Assembly: GCA_000827325.1 (NCBI GenBank)
Contig: KN832873.1
Location: 758,245 to 822,244 of the forward strand
Length of the DNA stretch: 64,000 nt
Direction: 5' to 3'
From: Oidiodendron maius Zn
Lineage: Eukaryota; Ascomycota; Leotiomycetes; Myxotrichaceae
This document shows, in pieces, positions 14,374 through 25,998 of the stretch (positions are counted from its first letter, which is position 1; each line of letters starts with the position of its first letter). Below the pieces are notes generated by a model that saw only the letters and a list, made by a program, of their open reading frames with translations, searched no databases and had not been told where the DNA came from. The position numbers and the translations under genes are program-made.

Positions 14374-16677
<2,304 letters not shown>

Positions 16678-18236
16678 GGCGCAATGACAAGGACGAATTG
16701 GTTTGAATGGTGTGCAACCCTCGACGACTGGGGAAGAAGAATGTTGTTATTTTGACGATGTTTGCGATTGTTCAAAGGGACGAAATATGGCGTCAGAAGT
16801 GCTGAGACTCGCTTAACGAAAGGGATGAATCCCTCCTAAAATTAAAATTAGATGAGCGATATAATTGGTCAAAAATTAAATCTGTACTCTCTGACTTGCT
16901 CGGTTAGATGATTTTTGTTGCCGTATTCAAACTTATTGCACCGCACTGTAGCTAGCCAATGTGTAAGCTCACTGTAAAATTGGTGATCTACAGGCTTGCT
17001 TCCTTATGGTTAAGTTTCTTTCTAAAGAGATGTTAACGTACTCGGCGTTAACATGTTGATCGGCGTAAGGTTTTGCCACCTTGGCAAGGCCAGAACTTGA
17101 TCTTGGAAATAGGCTGTGCACTTTGGCAGGTAAACTTTGGGTCTCTTCATTCGGTGGGTTGTCCCTTTTTCGACTACCCATTATTATCCAGTGGGCGTCC
17201 TCTTCGTAAGAACTTAGGTTATTGATTTACACTTTAGCTGTCCTCACCCCCACCCCCCACCCCCCCAGCACTTTATTAGCACTGGCTTCTTTCAAATCGC
17301 GTTATCTTCACGCCCCGAGGATATCCTCATAGCTGCATTTGGATCTGGAGTCCTCTCATCACACAGACACCTATTAGTTAAAGTCTTAAGCAATTGAATT
17401 CTTATCCCCTCCATTTGGCTGCGCAGAGACATCTTGTGATCCCTCCTGCTGCATTTATATTACAAATACCAACTCTATATTTGGCGATATTCTACGACTT
17501 CCAGATCTCACTCTTAAAATTTAACACGCCTTGAAACTAAAATCTATTAAGTCATTATAATTCTATACTAAATTGATTATTGCGAATACAGCCAAAATTC
17601 TGTAGCATATAAGTATTATTAAGAAATAGAAAATATAGAATTTAGATACGTAATATTTTTGGGCTGCGCAATTGGTACCCAAGTGCGCAGTAAATGACTG
17701 TGCATGGTCTCTGAGCAAAAGTTCCTCCATATTCAACGGCCATTCGAGCACCCATACCATTGGCATATTATCATGAGACACCACCTAACCACAACGCCAC
17801 GGAGGCCACAGAAGATCAACCTTAAGGCCGTGCCGGTGTTAGAAGTTCCAAAGGACAATACATTGAAGAACCCAGCCAAGCATCGCTAATCAAATTAATG
17901 GCCATTATTTCTATCCGGCTCCATCTGCACAATGTGGGAGAAATGCACTAGGGATTGCGATTTAGCTGGTCACTATTTCATTTACTTATTTTTGATTCCT
18001 TTACTTCACTGGTACTTGAGAGATTGTAATCTATTTTGCCTCAGGGTACATTGGATGCGATTGTATAATGAAGTCAATTCTGAGTTTTGAAAATAGGCGC
18101 CAAGCTGTCGGTATGTATGTCTACAACCCCTATATATACACAACGCCTGTATATGAAACAGACAGTTCACTCAATATTATGTATATCATTCCACATAAAT
18201 GATATGATTCCCCTCTAAAAGTCGAGGGAATGTTCT
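16678..18236. other. intergenic with C-rich tract
   Basis: About 1.56 kb without a supported gene. A C-rich run with only a few A interruptions lies at about 17240-17268. The stretch 17500-17680 is strongly AT-rich. Short frames at 16969-17181 and 17563-17784 show no family features. Confidence 0.45.
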
Positions 18237-19320
18237 CTAAGGCCCAATAATGTCTTGTGCATCATCTGCCCTCCGAGCCTCAATCCAAGCAATAGCCTCC
18301 TCCCGATTTCGGCAAACATGTGGTTGACCCTTATCTTTGTCGTCTGGAGTTGACATCGATCCTTCCAGAGTCATATCAAGGTTACAAAGTATGTTGTTTC
18401 GTAAATACTCGAAACAGTGAGCTGCGTGATAGGGGTTATCATTGTCGCTGGGACCATTCAGGACGAGTTGGTGATAGCTATCAACGGTGTAATATAACTA
18501 ATTTGAAAAGCAATTAGATAAAGGTTTGTAACGAGGGATTATGACAGGAACTGAGAAATTCACGTACGCAATGCAGCGCATGCGTCCACGACGCTTCAAA
18601 CAACGGACCGGAACGAATGGGATCGTCGATGATTGGATCACCAAGAAGGGGATGATCACGGTAATCTGGGATTAGGACACTTCCGCTGCCGACTATGTAA
18701 ACTGTGAGCATGTTCTCTTTACGTGTGATGATTTATAGTGGAAATCGTACGAGGCATGAGTAAATCCCAGTTTTTCCTCACTTCCATTCGATTATCATTG
18801 GTCGTCATATTTGGGATGTATTTCTCTTCCTCAGGTTTCAAGAAAGTGTATGTGTGAGACACTATTGCGAAGTCAGAAAGTTCAAGCAAACGCCATAATT
18901 CGTACGCAGAGGACAATTGTACTTACATGTCTTGTACAAACCATTTATATCGCCACCAGTCTCTACTGTTTGTGCCGCTTTGGCTGTCTCTTCAAGAGTG
19001 CCATCCCAGTTCTTATTTTCTTTCTGATTTACTGAAAGAAGAAATATCAGAATTATCTGTAATCCAACAATGACGCCGAATCGCAACCATGTCCAAAAAT
19101 TATTTAATTTATTCGAACGTTTCGCAGCACGTCTTTGCGCCAAGGGCGATGTCGATGGGCTCAAGTTCTCTCGTAAAGGAAGGAAGTGCATCTTATCATA
19201 GATCTCGACGGTAGATGAGAATTTCGTAGTGTCTGATTCGTTCCCTTCCAGATCTTCTTCGTCGCCCTTGTGAGAGGCGGCATTTTCGGGGAGTTTTGAG
19301 TATGTCCTGGCAAAGGCCAT
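18237..19320 (-). CDS. UstYa-family (DUF3328) oxidase, copy 1
   Basis: Four exons (19320-18927, 18861-18751, 18692-18568, 18497-18237) join to 296 residues. A basic N-terminal arm is followed by one membrane helix (FWTWLRFGVIVGLQIILIFLL), giving a type II membrane protein with a lumenal catalytic domain. The two family motifs are HALHC at the exon 3/4 junction and HAAHCFEYLRNNILC further on, both of HxxHC form, and the C-terminus carries the usual HVCRNREEAIAW block. Known members (ustiloxin UstYa/UstYb, phomopsin, cyclochlorotine) oxidise or cyclise peptide side chains and are thought to use a metal held by these His/Cys residues. It lies in tandem with a second UstYa gene and near a Kex2-repeat protein, the hallmark arrangement of dikaritin RiPP loci. 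Confidence 0.9.
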
Positions 19321-19934
19321 TTTCTAGAACACGATATCTTTTCGAATGAAATTATAGGCCTAGCGGGAATCAAGATTTACTCCACTCTCTGCCAGCAGGA
19401 GAATAGAAAGTCGACTGCGACCTCTTCATACAATGAGAAAAAGATAGAGAAGAAGATGAAAATTCTGTTTCGCATGAAGTGAAGACGACGCTCAAGTAAT
19501 CCCCACTACAACACGACTGTCAACTGCGGAACTTGAATTGTCTGATCGACAGAATGCCAGAGACCGGAGTTTTGTATTTTCAGGCACTCTAGTAGTCCCC
19601 TCGGGTGGAATATCCCTCATTGCGAAACCGTGGGGATTCATGCGACCTTTGCTACGTAAGCGGCATCTGATCTAAGGCTTGGTCGAGCAGTATATCACAG
19701 GGTTCCGGCTCCAGGTTTCAGAAGAATTCCATTGATGGAGTTTGGTTCGCGTACAGATGCTCCACCTCACATGGTGAAACGTGCCATTTATCTGCTTTCG
19801 GAAGTGGTATTTGCGATCTAAACCATCTTGTGCCTCATTCATACCCCTTGCCGCATAAACTAAAAGGATTGTAGAGCCGCACGCCTATATTTACGCCAGT
19901 TTGAATTACACACCTCATGAATTGTACAATTATT
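19321..19934. other. intergenic between the two UstYa-like genes
   Basis: 614 bp holding the promoter of UstYa copy 1 and the 3' flank of copy 2, which are in the same orientation. No additional coding sequence is recognised. Confidence 0.45.
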
Positions 19935-20946
19935 CTAGTCTTCAACGATCTCCATATTTCCAACCGAATGCTCAAGCGCCCACTCGCGTACCTCATCAAA
20001 ATTTCGACACACATGTTTCGAGTTGAGCTCTGGCCAAGCCAATGGATCGTCAGGGATCATGTAAAACGTGAACAGACCAATGTCGGCGTTGCATTGAATG
20101 TTTTGCCGCAACACCTCGATGCAGTGGTCTGTGCAACCCATCAGTCCCCGCATTTTCCCATGCCCAAGCTCAGGATACGAGTTGAGAGTAGAGTACGTAC
20201 CAGTGTGCCCCTTGAGTGCTTCTGGGCCCTTACCAAATTCCCCGCCCAGAGGCTCATAGTATTCCTTGTAGGTCACCCGCCGTAAAAGATTCAGACAGTG
20301 CAGGTGGTGGAATACTTCCATGCCGACTCTATACCCCTCCTCTCCTGTGTCGGGATGGTCGACTTTGAGGGAAGTCTCTGGCATATCTAGCTTCGAGAGA
20401 TCCGATTTCGAAATCCACTGGTCTCCCACTTTCAAGTTGTTAAAACTTGCACATTCCAAACTAAGGTGTACTTACTGTCATATGAGATTTCCCGCCATGC
20501 CTTATCGACCTCTGGGCCAGCGCCAACAAAACGGTTCTCCTTTGTTGTAATATTATATCTGATGTGATCATATCGCACCGAGTTATCAGCAGGTGCTGCG
20601 CACGTAGTTAGCGATACTTTTCGGCTTCTTGGACCCATCAGGGCGACTCACACCATGCCGAAAACTGACGGACGTGATCGAGGGTCGAGGTTCGCACAGC
20701 TAGCGACAATGCAAGAATTCCACAAGATGTAAAGAGTAGAGCGGCGTGGACCGCCCACAGCCATTTTGACCTCAGCCAAATATAAGCTGGCTGGCTAGCG
20801 AAATCTTTATAGAGGCCCGACTCCGGTTGATTTGACAAGAAGTCGAGGTCGTCAAGAGCATGAAGGGTTTCCGACGAGTCGGAAGAGAGGCGGCTGTCTT
20901 TCTCATCGGAAATGGATGGTCGGAGCGACCGGTACTCGAATGCCAT
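19935..20946 (-). CDS. UstYa-family (DUF3328) oxidase, copy 2
   Basis: Four exons (20946-20652, 20595-20476, 20428-20201, 20128-19935) give 278 residues. I chose the Met at 20946, which starts MAFEYRSLRP; an upstream in-frame Met (20970) would add eight residues. A single membrane helix (LWAVHAALLFTSCGILALSL) lies near residues 70-90. The catalytic motifs are FHHLHCLNLLRR and HTDHCIEVLRQNIQCNAD, the second formed across an intron, followed by KHVCRNFDEVREWA. The pattern HxxHC plus HxDHC is closer to the classical ustiloxin oxidases than copy 1 is. It should act in the Golgi or secretory lumen on the processed peptide. It is divergent from the repeat-protein gene with 797 bp between starts, so the two may be co-regulated. 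Confidence 0.92.
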
Positions 20947-21743
20947 GGTGATGCCGCTATAAAATAACAAATTGCTGAATAAATGCGTCTACAAGACGGT
21001 GTTTGGTAAGTTTAAACTAAGATGACGGTGGTTAATTTTTGAAGACAATTTTCGTCGATTGAAAGCTGGGCACAAAGAACTAACCGGCCTGTCAAACTCC
21101 AAAGGTAAGTTTTAAGCGAGTAGGAGTATTTGATCCGATAGTTGAACACAGTTCAGATGTTACAAAAAGAAGATCCATCAATTTCGAACCCTCCCGTTAC
21201 AGGGTCAGTGACATTCGGGTTAGGCGTGAATGGCTGGCCGTTTCACCACCCCAAGTGAAGCAGACTTGCTACTAGCGAGGGTCTGCGCGAAACCCGCAGA
21301 CCCGCACACCCCGGACCCGAGACTACGGCTATACTTGACCATCGACAGTGCGGCGACTAGAATTGGATCAGACATATTCGAGCCGAAGTCGATGACCTTT
21401 TCGTAACCGCTTGCTCACGATGTTACGTCAACCAGTTTGAAGAAGCTCATACTGTCAATGCGCTCTTGGCGCCATTCATGAGACGAGCAGTCGTCGAACG
21501 GTATCATGCTAATCGCTAGCTCAGAGTCCTTCAAAGACGACCGTGAAATGCTCGAGGTATTCTATAAAAGTCTGTAGCTTTCGCTCCCTTCTTCTATTTT
21601 TTTTTAGCTGCATCCCTTCTTTTGTCGTTCATCTCTTCCTTCATTATTCATTTGCTTTATTCGGTCGACTGCTGGTCAGTCCTTGTTTTTGCCTTTTAAA
21701 ACTTCTTTGTATATCTCAAATTTTCCTCCGCACTACATAAAAC
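20947..21743. promoter_or_regulatory. divergent promoter, UstYa copy 2 / RiPP precursor
   Basis: This 797-bp gap holds both promoters. The precursor side has a good core promoter: TATAAAAG at 21563-21570, about 174 bp before the ATG, followed by a strong pyrimidine-rich tract (about 21575-21730), typical of highly expressed fungal genes. No clear operator palindrome was found. Confidence 0.6.
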
Positions 21744-22718
21744 ATGCATCCAATCTCTGTTACTCAGGCCTTTGTTCTTGGCCTTCTTGCTTCCGCTCCC
21801 ATTGTTGCCAGCATCTCTGGTCCTAGCGATGAGGCCCTGCAGCGGCGGTATATTGTAAGTATCCCGTACCCTTCATCACGTTCGATTTCTAACTATAAAT
21901 TACAGGGTTCTGGTTCGTCTCTAGCTACCAAGATTGCCCGTTCCATAATCCCAGGCGTGGAGGCTCGCCACCACACGGAGGCTCAGATTGCTGCAAAGGA
22001 GGCTGCCGCGAAGAAGAAGAAGACCCAAGCTCGTGAAGCAGAGGCTCAGGCTCCTGATGAGTTTGGTCCTTGGGATGCCGAGGAGGACGAGTTTGGCTCC
22101 TGGGTCGACAAGCGTGAGCCGCACCACACGGAGGCTCAGATTGCCGCCAAGGAAGCTGCTGCTAAAAAGAGGGGCATGCCAAGCGTGAGGCTCATCATAC
22201 CGAGGCCCAGATTGCTGCAAAGGAGGCTGCCGCGAAGAAGAAGACTCACGCTCGTGAAGCAGAGGCTCAGGCTCCAGACGAATTTGGCCCGTGGGATGCT
22301 GAGGAGGACGAGTTTGGCTCCTGGGTCGACAAGCGTGAGCCTCATCACACCGAAGCCCAAATTGCCGCCAAGGAAGCTGCTGCTAAAAAGAAGGGGCATG
22401 CCAAGCGTGAGGCTCATCACACAGAGGCCCAGATTGCTGCAAAGGAGGCTGCCGCGAAGAAGAAGACTCACGCTCGCGAAGCAGAGGCTCAGGCTCCTGA
22501 TGAGTTTGGCCCGTGGGATGCCGAGGAGGACGAGTTTGGCTCCTGGGTCGACAAGCGAGAGCCGCACCACACTGAAGCTCAGATTGCCGCCAAGGAAGCT
22601 GCCGCCAAAAAGAAGGGGCATGCCAAGCGTGAGGCTCATCACACAGAGGCTCAGATTGCTGCCAAGGAAAAGGCTAAGGCCGCAAAGAACAACTAGGGTG
22701 TTTGAGCAAGAAGGGTGA
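21744..22718 (+). CDS. secreted Kex2-repeat protein, candidate dikaritin RiPP precursor (frameshifted)
   Basis: Exon 1 (21744-21854) encodes a signal peptide (AFVLGLLASAPIVAS); a 51-nt intron (21855-21905) follows. Exon 2 holds three copies of a 222-bp (74-residue) unit. Each unit has DEFGPW and DEFGSW, the latter followed by VDKR; spacers are rich in Ala, Lys and Glu (HHTEAQIAAKEAAAKK), with KR Kex2 sites followed by EA or EP dipeptides of the kind trimmed by dipeptidyl peptidases. This architecture is that of ustiloxin and phomopsin precursors, and two UstYa genes adjoin. Relative to units 2 and 3, unit 1 lacks one A near 22170 (AAAAAGAGGGG against AAAAAGAAGGGG). As given, the frame after that point is Arg/Leu-rich until a stop at 22718, whereas the repeat frame ends at the TAG at 22694-22696. 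It is either a broken allele or a sequence error. The core peptide assignment is inference. Confidence 0.8.
   Translation: MHPISVTQAFVLGLLASAPIVASISGPSDEALQRRYIVSIPYPSSRSISNYKLQGSGSSLATKIARSIIPGVEARHHTEAQIAAKEAAAKKKKTQAREAEAQAPDEFGPWDAEEDEFGSWVDKREPHHTEAQIAAKEAAAKKRGMPSVRLIIPRPRLLQRRLPRRRRLTLVKQRLRLQTNLARGMLRRTSLAPGSTSVSLITPKPKLPPRKLLLKRRGMPSVRLITQRPRLLQRRLPRRRRLTLAKQRLRLLMSLARGMPRRTSLAPGSTSESRTTLKLRLPPRKLPPKRRGMPSVRLITQRLRLLPRKRLRPQRTTRVFEQEG
21970..22680 (+). repeat. tandem 222-bp coding repeats of the precursor
   Basis: The anchor TGGGTCGACAAG begins at 22101, 22322 and 22544, so the spacings are 221 and 222 bp. Units are very similar, implying recent homogenisation, as is usual for dikaritin precursors. 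The 221-bp step reflects the one-base deletion in the first spacer. A further half-unit of the spacer type closes the array. Confidence 0.9.
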
Positions 22719-23578
22719 GGACAAGTGGAGATGGAACGGCAAAGGGATGACAATAATTTAGCTAGCTATTCTATGGAAAGCTTGTTAATAAGACAAGTAG
22801 TCAGGTTTAATTCTACTTTTATTACAATCAAGGTAGTGCACACGTACATCATCCTATCCGCCGTAACTCCCCTAAGCAGGCTCCGAGCCTTCGTGATATA
22901 CTGGTAGACTGAGCCTAGCGGGCCAAATGTGAGTTGTATTCGCTGATCTGACTCGCTTATGACGCCAATTATATACGGCATTCCGTCAAAGTCGGTTATA
23001 TATTCAAGCGCGCTAGTCAAGCTAGTCGAGACATTCATTCCCGTCCGCAGCAGAGTGAAATGCAGAAAGCTGAGAAGCATCATTTCGAGCAGCACGATGA
23101 AGCTTGAAATGCAAAGCTAACAATCTGCGACTATTTCCAGATTAGATGTACGTCCCTCCCACACAACTACTGCTGGTCTCATGATTGACTCACCATCCTC
23201 AGATCTCATCCCATTTTCATCGTCTTCCTCATATCCTTCTGCATGAAATCATGCCCGACTAACTCTTGCAATTTTCTGCTGGTATATCTTGGCCAAAACT
23301 AGTCAACCGACTAAATCTAAAAGCGTGCCTTGCCTGCCTGTAGTAAATGCTACTTAGTCACTCAGCTCGAAGCTAGGTGAAGGAAATCAACTGACTTAAG
23401 TCGACCGAAGTTGCCCCGTAACCAAGCCTATTAAACTTACCAACGCCTCCCTCCAACCTCCCTGCCTGGCACTGTCTTTTTCGTGCCCCGTTGTGTCTGT
23501 TATCGAGACGTCCCATTGCGTGCGACTCCTCTATCGCGACAAGTTCAAGCAGAAAGATAGCAATTCATATCCGGACAA
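22719..23578. other. intergenic, no gene seen
   Basis: About 860 bp between the precursor and the cytochrome b5-HET gene. The region 23420-23480 is pyrimidine-rich and may belong to the promoter of the downstream gene. No coding frame is supported. Confidence 0.4.
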
Positions 23579-25998
23579 ATGTCGAAACAATTTACATACG
23601 CCGAGGTCCAGGCACACTCGGCCAAGAAAGATCTATACGTGGTCATCCACGACAAGATCTACGATGTCACCTCTTTCATTGATGAGCATCCAGGTGGGGA
23701 GGAAGCCCTACTCGACATTGGTGGACAAGACGCAACCGAGGCTTTCGAGGATGTTGGACACAGTGACGAGGCTCGAGAGATACTAGATGGCATCTTGATC
23801 GGAGAGTTGAAACGTGAATACCTTATCACGATGACTGATCCTTCGCCACCTAAAAGTCGTTCGGATTTTGAAATAGCTCACGGTAAGTAATGACTTTAGG
23901 GGAGGTCGCACCACAAGGCATGCTGACTGGTGATCGATGGTTAGGCCGCCCGCATAACCCTTTTCCGTCTGCTGCTGAGGCGCCCTTCAATTCGTACCAG
24001 AGACAACACAAACCTACCTCGGGCGGAAACTGGTTTTGCTATTCTGAGTCGTTGACGGAGTCGGATATTCGCGTTTTTGATTTGATGCCCGGATTAGGAA
24101 CTGATCAAATTCGCATAAAGTTCTACACTTCTTTGATGACCGCAAGTGAAAATAAATATACTGCGCTTTCATACACGTGGAATAATAGTGATGGAACGGA
24201 TGATGATAAAATTATCATGGTACTTATCGTCTCAATATCTCCAAGTCTCTTCGCCTAGGTGTTGAACATGCCAAGTAAATATATGTCCACAAAACTGACA
24301 ATACGGAAGATTGACGTTAACGGAGAATTGAAATCGAAAAAGGTAACCTCGAATCTAGAAGCGGCCTTAAAACAACTGCGACACGAATGGAATCCAAGGA
24401 CTTTCTGGGTCGATGCTCTTTGCATTAATCAATATTCAAGCGTTGAGCCCGCAACACAAATTCCCCAAATGGGGCGCATCTACTCCCAGGCCAAAAAGTT
24501 ATACATTTGGCTAGGATCTGAAGCTGACAGTAGTGCCATAGCCATGAAGTTCATTGAGAAGGTGTCCGAAGTGTCTCAGATCGACCAACTTGTCAAAAAC
24601 CCCAAGTACAAGCCTGAGTGGGCTGCTTTCGCCAAATTGATGAGGAGAAAGTGGTTCAACAGAAGATGGGTGGTCCAAGAACTGCATTTCGGCAGTCGTA
24701 AGGAAGCAATTGTCTATTGTGGTAAGGAATCAGTTAGGTGGGATACCTTTGCGCTGGCGATTGCGCTGTTCGAAGCAAATTCTCATCAAGTACAAAGCAT
24801 GTTCGGCAGTGACGGTTTTGAGCTTGGCGAATTTCAAGGTCTTGGAGCAAGTACTCTCGTAGCAATGACGAACAGAATGTTTGCACACGAGCAAAACAAG
24901 GGACTCGGTGGTAGTGTCGTTTCTTTAGAAGGGCTGCTTTCAAACCTGTCGATGTTCCAGGTGTCCCATCCTTGGGATACGGTCTACGCCTTCTTGTCTC
25001 TTGCCGATAACGGACACGAAATAAAAGTTGACTACGACAAGCCTCTAATTCACGTACTGGCTGAGGCAGTCTGGAAGGCAATTGATAGTTCAAAATCGGT
25101 GGATATATTGTGTCGACCATGGGCTCCTACACGCGAAGAAATAGGGGCATGGAATGCGAATGCAGAGGGAATGCTACAGAATCAAACTCAGCAGGCTCAA
25201 ACTCAGTTGCCGTCATGGATTCGCGACACTACCTTCAGCGAATTCGCACCCAGAAATAGGACGGTTGGTGCGCAATATGACCGGATCAACGCAACTTTAT
25301 TCGTTGGCCAACCAGGTCAACCAATCTACAATGCAAGCAACTCATCAACTTTCACGACGATGAGTAACCAGTACAACCTCAACAAGTCTGTAGATACCGC
25401 TCCGTGGATCTTAAGATTGCGAGGTATCTACATTGACGAGATCAGAATCGATGGAGGAGCGATTTGCGGTTCCTCAATACATGGAATCATTCCGGCGGCG
25501 TGGGTAAAGCTAGCAAAATGGGATCCACGTGGAACAAAAAGTGTGCCTACGGAGTTCTGGCATACTCTTGTTGCCAGTCGAGGGCTAGGTGGTGGCGAGG
25601 CCCCCAACTGGTATGGGAAAGCGTGTGAACATGCCTGGAAAGACACCGCGTCATGGGATTTGAACACCGAACGGGTTCTCAATCATTGCGAATATTCCAT
25701 GACCATTAGTTTCATCAGGAAGGTGCGACAAACAGTCTGGAATCGGCAAATGTTCCGCACACATCGTCTCAAATTGCTCGGATTAGGACCGTCTAATGCC
25801 CCCGGCGAGGAGGCGGTCCAGCATAAAGACATGATATTTATCGTCAAAGGATGCAGTGTGCCCGTAATTTTGAGGAAGACTGCAGACAGAAAGTATAGCT
25901 TCATAGGAGAATGCTATGTCCATGGGCTCATGGGAGGGAATGGACTTAATATGCTCAAGCCGGGACCTCCAGAGTGGGCACCCCTGCAAATTCTTTAA
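23579..25998 (+). CDS. cytochrome b5-HET domain fusion protein
   Basis: Three exons (23579-23882, 23945-24219, 24259-25998) join in phase to 772 residues. Residues about 1-80 are a cytochrome b5 domain with the haem-binding His motif [15 protein letters not shown] and the second His in DVGHSDEA. From about residue 150 a HET domain begins: [12 protein letters not shown], then [30 protein letters not shown] and [14 protein letters not shown], the conserved order of the family. HET proteins act in heterokaryon incompatibility and other self/non-self cell-death responses. A soluble haem domain on a HET protein is unusual and could give redox or ligand sensing. The joining introns are short and canonical, the first directly after the b5 part, so the fusion rests on splicing being as I read it; two adjacent genes is the alternative. 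Confidence 0.8.

What the first reader, a model, noticed from the sequence alone, without database searches (positions are those of the whole stretch)
18237..22718. Compact dikaritin-type RiPP locus with an unfamiliar core
Two UstYa/DUF3328 genes and a signal-peptide-bearing protein of Kex2-cleavable repeats stand side by side within 4.5 kb. This is the defining combination of ustiloxin, phomopsin and asperipin loci. The repeated core candidates DEFGPW and DEFGSW, with an aromatic Phe and Trp three residues apart, do not resemble the cores that I know (YAIG, YVIPFD type), so the product would be new, possibly with a Phe-Trp or Trp-linked ring.
Basis: partly seen in the sequence, partly recalled or inferred. 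Interest (0 to 1): 0.92.

Follow-up and report, generated by a model that had tools for sequence, protein, structure and literature searches.

The report
Conserved fungal His-His peptide cassette
This fungal locus pairs a gene for a secreted protein made of repeated short peptides with two copper-oxidase-type genes, like known fungal ring-peptide loci, but its most conserved peptide (starting His-His-Thr-Glu-Ala-Gln) is not the one first proposed and recurs almost unchanged in many other fungi.

Summary
Two complete UstYa/DUF3328 genes and a signal-peptide-bearing, Kex2-type repeat gene do lie side by side (window 18237-22696). The dikaritin-like architecture is right; the proposed core is probably not the main one. 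Across 50 homologues the near-invariant repeat is HHTEAQIAAK; 11 of 50 have no DEFG motif. Of 204 HHTEAQ-type occurrences, 203 have a basic residue upstream, and in all 203 the gap is exactly 0-5 X-Ala/X-Pro dipeptides, the Ste13 signature of alpha-pheromone precursors: the mature peptide should start at His-His. DEFGPW...DEFGSW is a second, optional peptide. Both oxidases have orthologues on the same contig as the precursor in Xylogone, Trichoderma gracile and the lichen fungus Varicellaria. The family very probably equals KEP type G-3 of Umemura 2020, so it is catalogued; my ten paper searches found no product. Neither repeated peptide contains Tyr, so the Tyr-ether link of ustiloxin cannot form inside them. 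Best reading: binuclear-copper oxidases modify a Kex2/Ste13-released His-His peptide that is conserved like a signal rather than diversified like a toxin.

The parts
18237..19320 (-). U1, UstYa/DUF3328-family oxidase, 4 exons (19320-18927, 18861-18751, 18692-18568, 18497-18237), 296 aa; HALHC and HAAHC motifs; one predicted membrane helix in its orthologue
   Evidence: PF11807 match E 3.8e-8; gene model; agrees with 31 orthologues; orthologue P0157 scores 56.6 bits to PF11807
19935..20946 (-). U2, UstYa/DUF3328-family oxidase, 4 exons (20946-20652, 20595-20476, 20428-20201, 20128-19935), 278 aa; HHLHC and HTDHC motifs
   Evidence: PF11807 match E 1.2e-35; gene model, 277 of 278 residues identical to P0051; orthologues
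21744..21854 (+). exon 1 of the repeat precursor: signal-peptide-like N-terminus MHPISVTQAFVLGLLASAPIVAS... and RRYI
   Evidence: translation; same start in near-identical P0002. No signal-peptide program was available
21855..21905 (+). intron of the precursor, 51 nt, GTAAGT...TTACAG
   Evidence: spliced product (RRYI-GSGS...) matches homologues such as P0006 (RRYVGS...)
21906..22163 (+). exon 2, first open frame: leader ...LATKIARSIIPGVEAR, two His-His units, one DEFGPW/DEFGSW unit
22166..22696 (+). exon 2 continued in another phase: five His-His units, two DEFGPW/DEFGSW units, stop TAG 22694-22696
   Evidence: homologues
21972..22668 (+). 222-bp tandem repeat array, 3.1 copies
   Evidence: Tandem Repeats Finder; the repeat finder

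Best explanation
The locus is a three-gene cassette for a secreted, oxidatively modified peptide. The precursor enters the secretory pathway by its signal peptide; Kex2 cuts after Lys-Arg or Arg, and a Ste13-type dipeptidyl aminopeptidase removes X-Ala/X-Pro dipeptides, exposing a peptide that begins exactly at His-His (HHTEAQIAAK...). A second peptide, Q-x-x-DEFGPWDxxEDEFGSW(V/L)D, is released from most but not all members. U1 and U2, membrane-anchored UstYa-type binuclear-copper oxidases, act in the same pathway; I think the main substrate is the His-His peptide, changed by C-H oxidation or a cross-link that cannot involve Tyr. Its near-invariance across several classes of fungi fits a conserved signal, hormone or metal-binding peptide better than a diversifying toxin. 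Shown: gene anatomy, motifs, dipeptide register, conservation, same-contig linkage in several fungi. Inferred: the cuts themselves, the copper chemistry, which peptide is modified, and the role.
Against: No product is known. No experiment says which peptide, if either, is modified. His-His is only slightly commoner in KEPs with DUF3328 neighbours than without (5.7% against 3.9%), whereas Tyr is clearly enriched (65.6% against 38.2%) and these peptides have none (PMC7329392 section 7). The DEFG peptide is equally constrained where present. No Botrytis-named row appears among the 106 U2 rows although Botrytis precursors are His-His only, so U2 might serve DEFG. Same-contig evidence on megabase contigs is not adjacency. 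The window's own repeat gene is out of frame for most of its units.
Confidence: 0.55

Rival explanations
1. One reading: DEFGPW/DEFGSW is the core and UstYa enzymes join Phe or Trp into a ring; the His-His repeats are spacers or recognition elements.
For: DEFGPWDxxEDEFGSW is highly conserved where present (59 units) and free of non-synonymous change among the window's three units. The victorin core is cyclised through a Phe side chain according to PMC9233826 (passage), so a Tyr-free core is possible. Trimming by the X-Ala/X-Pro rule leaves N-terminal Gln in 39 of 59 units, as in pyroglutamate-capped KEP peptides of PMC9769878.
Against: 11 of 50 homologues have no EFG motif but keep His-His repeats, and Botrytis keeps a U1 orthologue (P0190). 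A spacer would not be expected to hold ten residues nearly fixed with a strict dipeptide register before it. Trp is not enriched in KEPs with DUF3328 neighbours (20.5% against 24.5%).
Confidence: 0.2
2. Division of labour: U1 acts on the His-His peptide and U2 on the DEFG peptide, giving two products from one precursor.
For: Two distinct UstYa subfamilies are kept together; Botrytis has U1 rows and DEFG-less precursors but no row named Botrytis among the U2 rows.
Against: A U2-like row exists in Lachnellula cervina (P0092, 52% identity), while the one Lachnellula precursor seen (P0049, a partial 126-aa protein) has no DEFG. UstYa-type enzymes also work as pairs on one core in ustiloxin. The U2 list was cut at E 1e-30 and many rows are unnamed.
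Confidence: 0.15
3. The precursor yields only linear, unmodified secreted peptides of the alpha-pheromone kind; the UstYa genes serve something else.
For: The Ste13 register and the extreme constancy are pheromone-like; Umemura 2020 finds nearly all pheromone KEPs without DUF3328 neighbours, i.e. linear (abstract).
Against: The same source gives 57 of 64 G-3 members a DUF3328 neighbour; U1 and U2 orthologues accompany the precursor in several fungi.
Confidence: 0.15

Closest known systems
KEP type G-3 (#6) of Umemura 2020 (PMC7329392)
   Same: Di-histidine repeat motif; DUF3328 neighbours in 57 of 64; genera include 8 of the 13 named genera of my precursor homologues (Fonsecaea, Cladophialophora, Exophiala, Scytalidium, Trichoderma, Botrytis, Botryotinia, Lachnellula) and others with U1/U2 rows (Talaromyces, Verruconis, Capronia, Rhynchosporium, Rutstroemia, Hyaloscypha)
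   Different: The logo figure and tables are not held, so identity of the motif is inferred; the paper text I saw does not describe the Ste13 register, the optional DEFG peptide or the two oxidase subfamilies. Fonsecaea and Cladophialophora also occur in its type P-3 (Trp with Pro), which could hold some DEFGPW members
Dikaritins (ustiloxin, phomopsin, asperipin-2a)
   Same: Signal peptide, Kex2-type multicore precursor, UstYa-family oxidases with two HxxHC motifs
   Different: No Tyr in the repeated peptides; no tyrosinase or S41 peptidase in the window; core nearly invariant across classes; Ste13 register
Ascomycete alpha-pheromone precursors
   Same: Kex2 sites followed by X-Ala/X-Pro dipeptides before each peptide; peptide strongly constrained
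   Different: Different peptide; alpha-pheromone KEPs almost never have DUF3328 neighbours (PMC7329392)
N. crassa POI2 / G-10
   Same: UstYa-linked KEP that, per PMC7329392 section 9, is needed for sexual development: precedent for a developmental rather than toxic role
   Different: POI2 belongs to the YxIx (Tyr-Ile) type

Membership tests
Kex2-processed repeat protein (KEP) | signal peptide plus repeated peptides flanked by Kex2 sites | tested here: met
   the signal peptide by eye only. Three Lys-Arg sites per array unit pair; some units end in a single Arg. In this assembly the frame changes once inside the array
KEP with Ste13 signature | X-Ala/X-Pro dipeptides between Kex2 site and peptide | tested here: met
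   203 of 203 spacers with a basic residue upstream, 204 occurrences in all, 50 homologues; for the DEFG unit the rule leaves Gln in 39 of 59
UstYa/DUF3328 (PF11807) | PF11807 match and HxxHC(x)nHxxHC | tested here: met
   U1 HALHC/HAAHC, U2 HHLHC/HTDHC
UstYa/DUF3328 | motifs on paired helices; membrane helix | tested here: met
   Models of moderate confidence: P0051 (277/278 identical to U2) pLDDT 75.0, motifs in helices 176-191 and 207-228; U1 orthologue P0157 pLDDT 68.0, helices 201-222 and 230-246. Three-dimensional distances were not measured
Dikaritin (broad sense: KEP + UstYa class enzyme) | precursor and DUF3328 genes clustered | tested here: met
   Window 18237-22696;
Dikaritin (Ding-type set) | tyrosinase, methyltransferase and peptidase in the cluster | tested here: not met
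   No PF00264 or PF03572 match in the window; no PF13649 match among the 50 of 118 candidates scored (other methyltransferase families not searched). Asperipin-type loci also lack some of these
Dikaritin (ustiloxin chemistry) | Tyr in the core | tested here: not met
   No Tyr in HHTEAQIAAKEAAA... or QAPDEFGPWDAEEDEFGSWVD units of the window
Dikaritin / RiPP | modified cyclic product | not testable with these tools
   needs mass spectrometry
KEP type G-3 | same repeat profile as Fig. 5b | tested here: inconclusive
   genera, di-His motif and DUF3328 linkage agree; figure and supplements not readable

The most novel reading that the evidence does not exclude
HHTEAQIAAK is a widely conserved fungal peptide signal (or extracellular copper-binding peptide with an N-terminal His-His) that is matured like a pheromone by Kex2 and Ste13 and then oxidised by two dedicated binuclear-copper UstYa enzymes, with a His-centred modification (for example an imidazole linked to the beta-carbon of Ile7, the Tyr-free counterpart of the Tyr-Ile link of ustiloxin). 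That would make it the first UstYa-modified signal peptide kept across fungal classes and the first His-based UstYa product.
Probability: 0.2. Interest if true: 0.85.

Novelty: new variant of a known kind. Interest (0 to 1): 0.55.

Why it matters
UstYa-linked repeat precursors are known mainly as sources of Tyr-based toxins. A large, Tyr-free branch whose peptide is almost invariant from Trichoderma to black yeasts, Botrytis and lichen fungi points to a shared biological job rather than an arms race. The dipeptide register fixes the N-terminus of the mature peptide, so exact masses can be sought directly in cultures of harmless laboratory fungi, and the two oxidases become testable for chemistry on His, Phe or Trp.

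Tried and rejected
Rejected: (1) that U2 has a defective second motif (CTDHC), as my first model (note 1) said: orthologues showed an unspliced 72-nt in-frame intron; the motif is HTDHC. (2) That the precursor is an alpha-pheromone: the peptide differs and it has UstYa neighbours. (3) A known Pfam name: the 8 precursor sequences tested, two of them window pieces, have no Pfam match above cut-off; one homologue (P0023) carries a precomputed PF28547.1, which is not in the Pfam copy here.

Led nowhere: scans of genome contigs and viral contigs for precursor relatives with DNA context (none); PDB sequence searches for both oxidase alignments (none at E 0.1); Foldseek of the U2 model (none at E 0.001; the U1 model was not searched); ten paper searches for a described product or for the peptide letters. 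PMC12143957 is not held. The species of the window was not identified.

Limits: the precursor search scored only the 8000 best candidates; several homologues are partial or come from short metagenome contigs; row names are those of cluster representatives; several of the 15 U1/U2 pairs used join different strains or, for Rhynchosporium, species, and a correlation of U1 with U2 distances (Spearman 0.851, 0 of 5000 permutations) is expected from shared ancestry alone.
Full report
What is there. The window is G000:C4:758245-822244 of an unnamed 45.9-Mb, 58-contig fungal genome. PF11807 (UstYa) matches two minus-strand genes in it: 19968-20438 (E 1.2e-35) and 18276-18503 (E 3.8e-8), out of 70 exon-level matches genome-wide. 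Gene models: U1, 18237-19320, four exons, 296 aa, HALHC and HAAHC; U2, 19935-20946, four exons, 278 aa, HHLHC and HTDHC. My first U2 model left a 72-nt in-frame intron in place and wrongly gave CTDHC; orthologues corrected it. U2 is identical at 277 of 278 positions to P0051, a protein from an unnamed source.

The precursor. On the plus strand an exon (21744-21854) encodes a signal-peptide-like start; after a 51-nt intron the array begins at 21906. It is a 222-bp repeat of 3.1 copies with seven His-His units (HHTEAQIAAKE...) and three units DEFGPWDAEEDEFGSWVDKR. In the Lys-rich linker after the first unit the phase changes once: copy spacing is 221 then 222. Summed over the 21 pairs of His-His units there are 112 synonymous and 6 non-synonymous differences (159 and 597 sites); over the 3 pairs of DEFG units 14 and 0 (47.3 and 195.7 sites). 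So the peptides were under selection in both frame pieces; the break is recent or an assembly error. A close relative, P0002 (96% identical to the searched piece), has an intact array.

Homologues. The piece 22166-22693 finds 50 proteins at E <= 1e-3 (only the 8000 best candidates were scored): Fonsecaea, Cladophialophora, Exophiala, Xylogone, Scytalidium, Trichoderma, Varicellaria, Bogoriella, Botrytis, Botryotinia, Ciborinia, Lachnellula, Acephala and unnamed sources. Seeding on Q..AK (204 sites) the residues before it are His 200, His 201, Thr 203, Glu 201, Ala 198; seeding on HHT/HYT (208 sites) the residues after it are Glu 207, Ala 203, Gln 206, Ile 201, Ala 197, Ala 202, Lys 204, and then conservation falls. 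No EFG motif is found in 11 of 50: six Botrytis/Botryotinia, one each of Ciborinia, Lachnellula (partial) and Acephala, two unnamed. The EFG part is also reduced in Trichoderma (P0018, P0030, P0033 have DEFGSW but not DEFGPW).

Where the mature peptide starts. For 204 HHTEAQ-type occurrences I took the residues between the nearest upstream Lys/Arg and the motif. One has no basic residue within 16. In the other 203 the segment is empty (59) or made wholly of X-Ala/X-Pro dipeptides: one (126), two (5), three (6), four (5) or five (2). This is the STE13 motif of alpha-pheromone precursors (PMC6339444 section 9; PMC9769878 passages, where XP/XA removal from a fungal KEP in Pichia was detected). 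The peptide should therefore begin at His-His. The same rule applied to 59 DEFGPW units leaves N-terminal Gln in 39, Ala 10, Asp 8, His 1, Val 1; KEP peptides with N-terminal Gln were found as pyroglutamate in PMC9769878. The C-termini cannot be fixed from sequence. The genome has one proprotein-convertase P-domain match and one DPPIV_N match.

Mechanism. In CctR the HxxHC(x)nHxxHC motif forms a binuclear copper centre on paired helices of a membrane-anchored homodimer (PMC12435403, passages); PMC12186524 (passages) names UstY enzymes as dicopper oxidases. Models of P0051 (pLDDT 75.0, pTM 0.63) and of the U1 orthologue P0157 (68.0, 0.53) place each motif in one of two consecutive helices after a long N-terminal helix; distances were not measured, and Foldseek found no PDB match at E <= 0.001 for the U2 model. 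No solved relative by sequence. Neither repeated peptide has Tyr, so the Tyr-ether link described for ustiloxins and phomopsins (PMC9233826, passages) is impossible in them; the same passages describe victorin as closed through a Phe, so DEFG is not excluded. I favour the His-His peptide as main substrate because it is the constant element, also where DEFG is missing, and Botrytis keeps U1 (P0190). Against: no Botrytis-named U2 row was seen, DEFG is equally constrained where present, and no experiment exists.

Known or new. Umemura 2020 (PMC7329392; outline, sections 6, 7 and 9 read) lists KEP type G-3: 64 proteins, 59 strains, 20 genera, 57 with a DUF3328 gene within 15 genes, di-histidine motif. 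Eight of the 13 named genera of my precursor homologues are in that list. The figure with the motif and the supplements were not readable, so the identity is a strong inference; Fonsecaea and Cladophialophora also occur in type P-3. The text I saw does not describe the dipeptide register, the second peptide or the two oxidase subfamilies. Its section 9 recalls N. crassa POI2, a UstYa-linked KEP needed for sexual development: a precedent for a non-toxin role. Ten paper searches (listed in Tried and rejected) gave no product for this type; the library leaves out most subscription journals.

Surroundings. No tyrosinase or S41 peptidase match lies in the window (nearest tyrosinase on the contig at C4:140785-141466), and no Methyltransf_25 among the 50 of 118 candidates scored. 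Of 18 window ORFs given to Pfam, neighbours include a cytochrome b5 and a HET ORF (23561-25995), an alpha/beta hydrolase, an aldo/keto reductase, transporters and a P450; nothing ties these to the cassette.

Verdict. A real, conserved dikaritin-like cassette of an already catalogued precursor type, with a different main peptide than proposed, a pheromone-like maturation register and a broken frame in this copy. New variant of a known kind.

Noticed in passing
G000 C15:922704-933397, C17:37632-46430, C1:6595733-6597445, C14:605235-605927, C11:548224-551655: Clusters of further UstYa (PF11807) matches in the same genome (70 exon-level matches in all): other candidate UstYa loci.
   Followed up: no
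window 14594-16746 (-): Exons of a flavoprotein with GAGPTGLGAAKRL; recalled as UDP-galactopyranose mutase-like. The two exons tested gave no Pfam match at 1e-3.
   Followed up: partly
window 23561-25995 (+): Cytochrome b5 ORF directly followed by HET-domain ORFs in the same direction, perhaps one fused gene.
   Followed up: no
P0027 and P0022: Two homologues also look phase-shifted: P0027 reads another frame before its Lys-rich linker, and P0022 has one DEFG segment in another frame while its His-His units stay in frame. Frame slips in these arrays may be common, or gene-calling artefacts.
   Followed up: partly
window 21906-21968 and P0002, P0005, P0006, P0018 and others: The leader between signal peptide and first His-His unit (…ATKxxRSIIPGxEAR) is also conserved and might be a recognition element or a further peptide.
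   Followed up: no
U1 and U2 trees: Xylogone groups with Trichoderma and the window rather than with Lachnellula and Rhynchosporium in both trees, below the starred support level; possible lateral transfer of the cassette.
   Followed up: partly
P0023: A precomputed Pfam accession PF28547.1 suggests that a newer Pfam has a family for these repeats; it is not in the copy here.
   Followed up: partly
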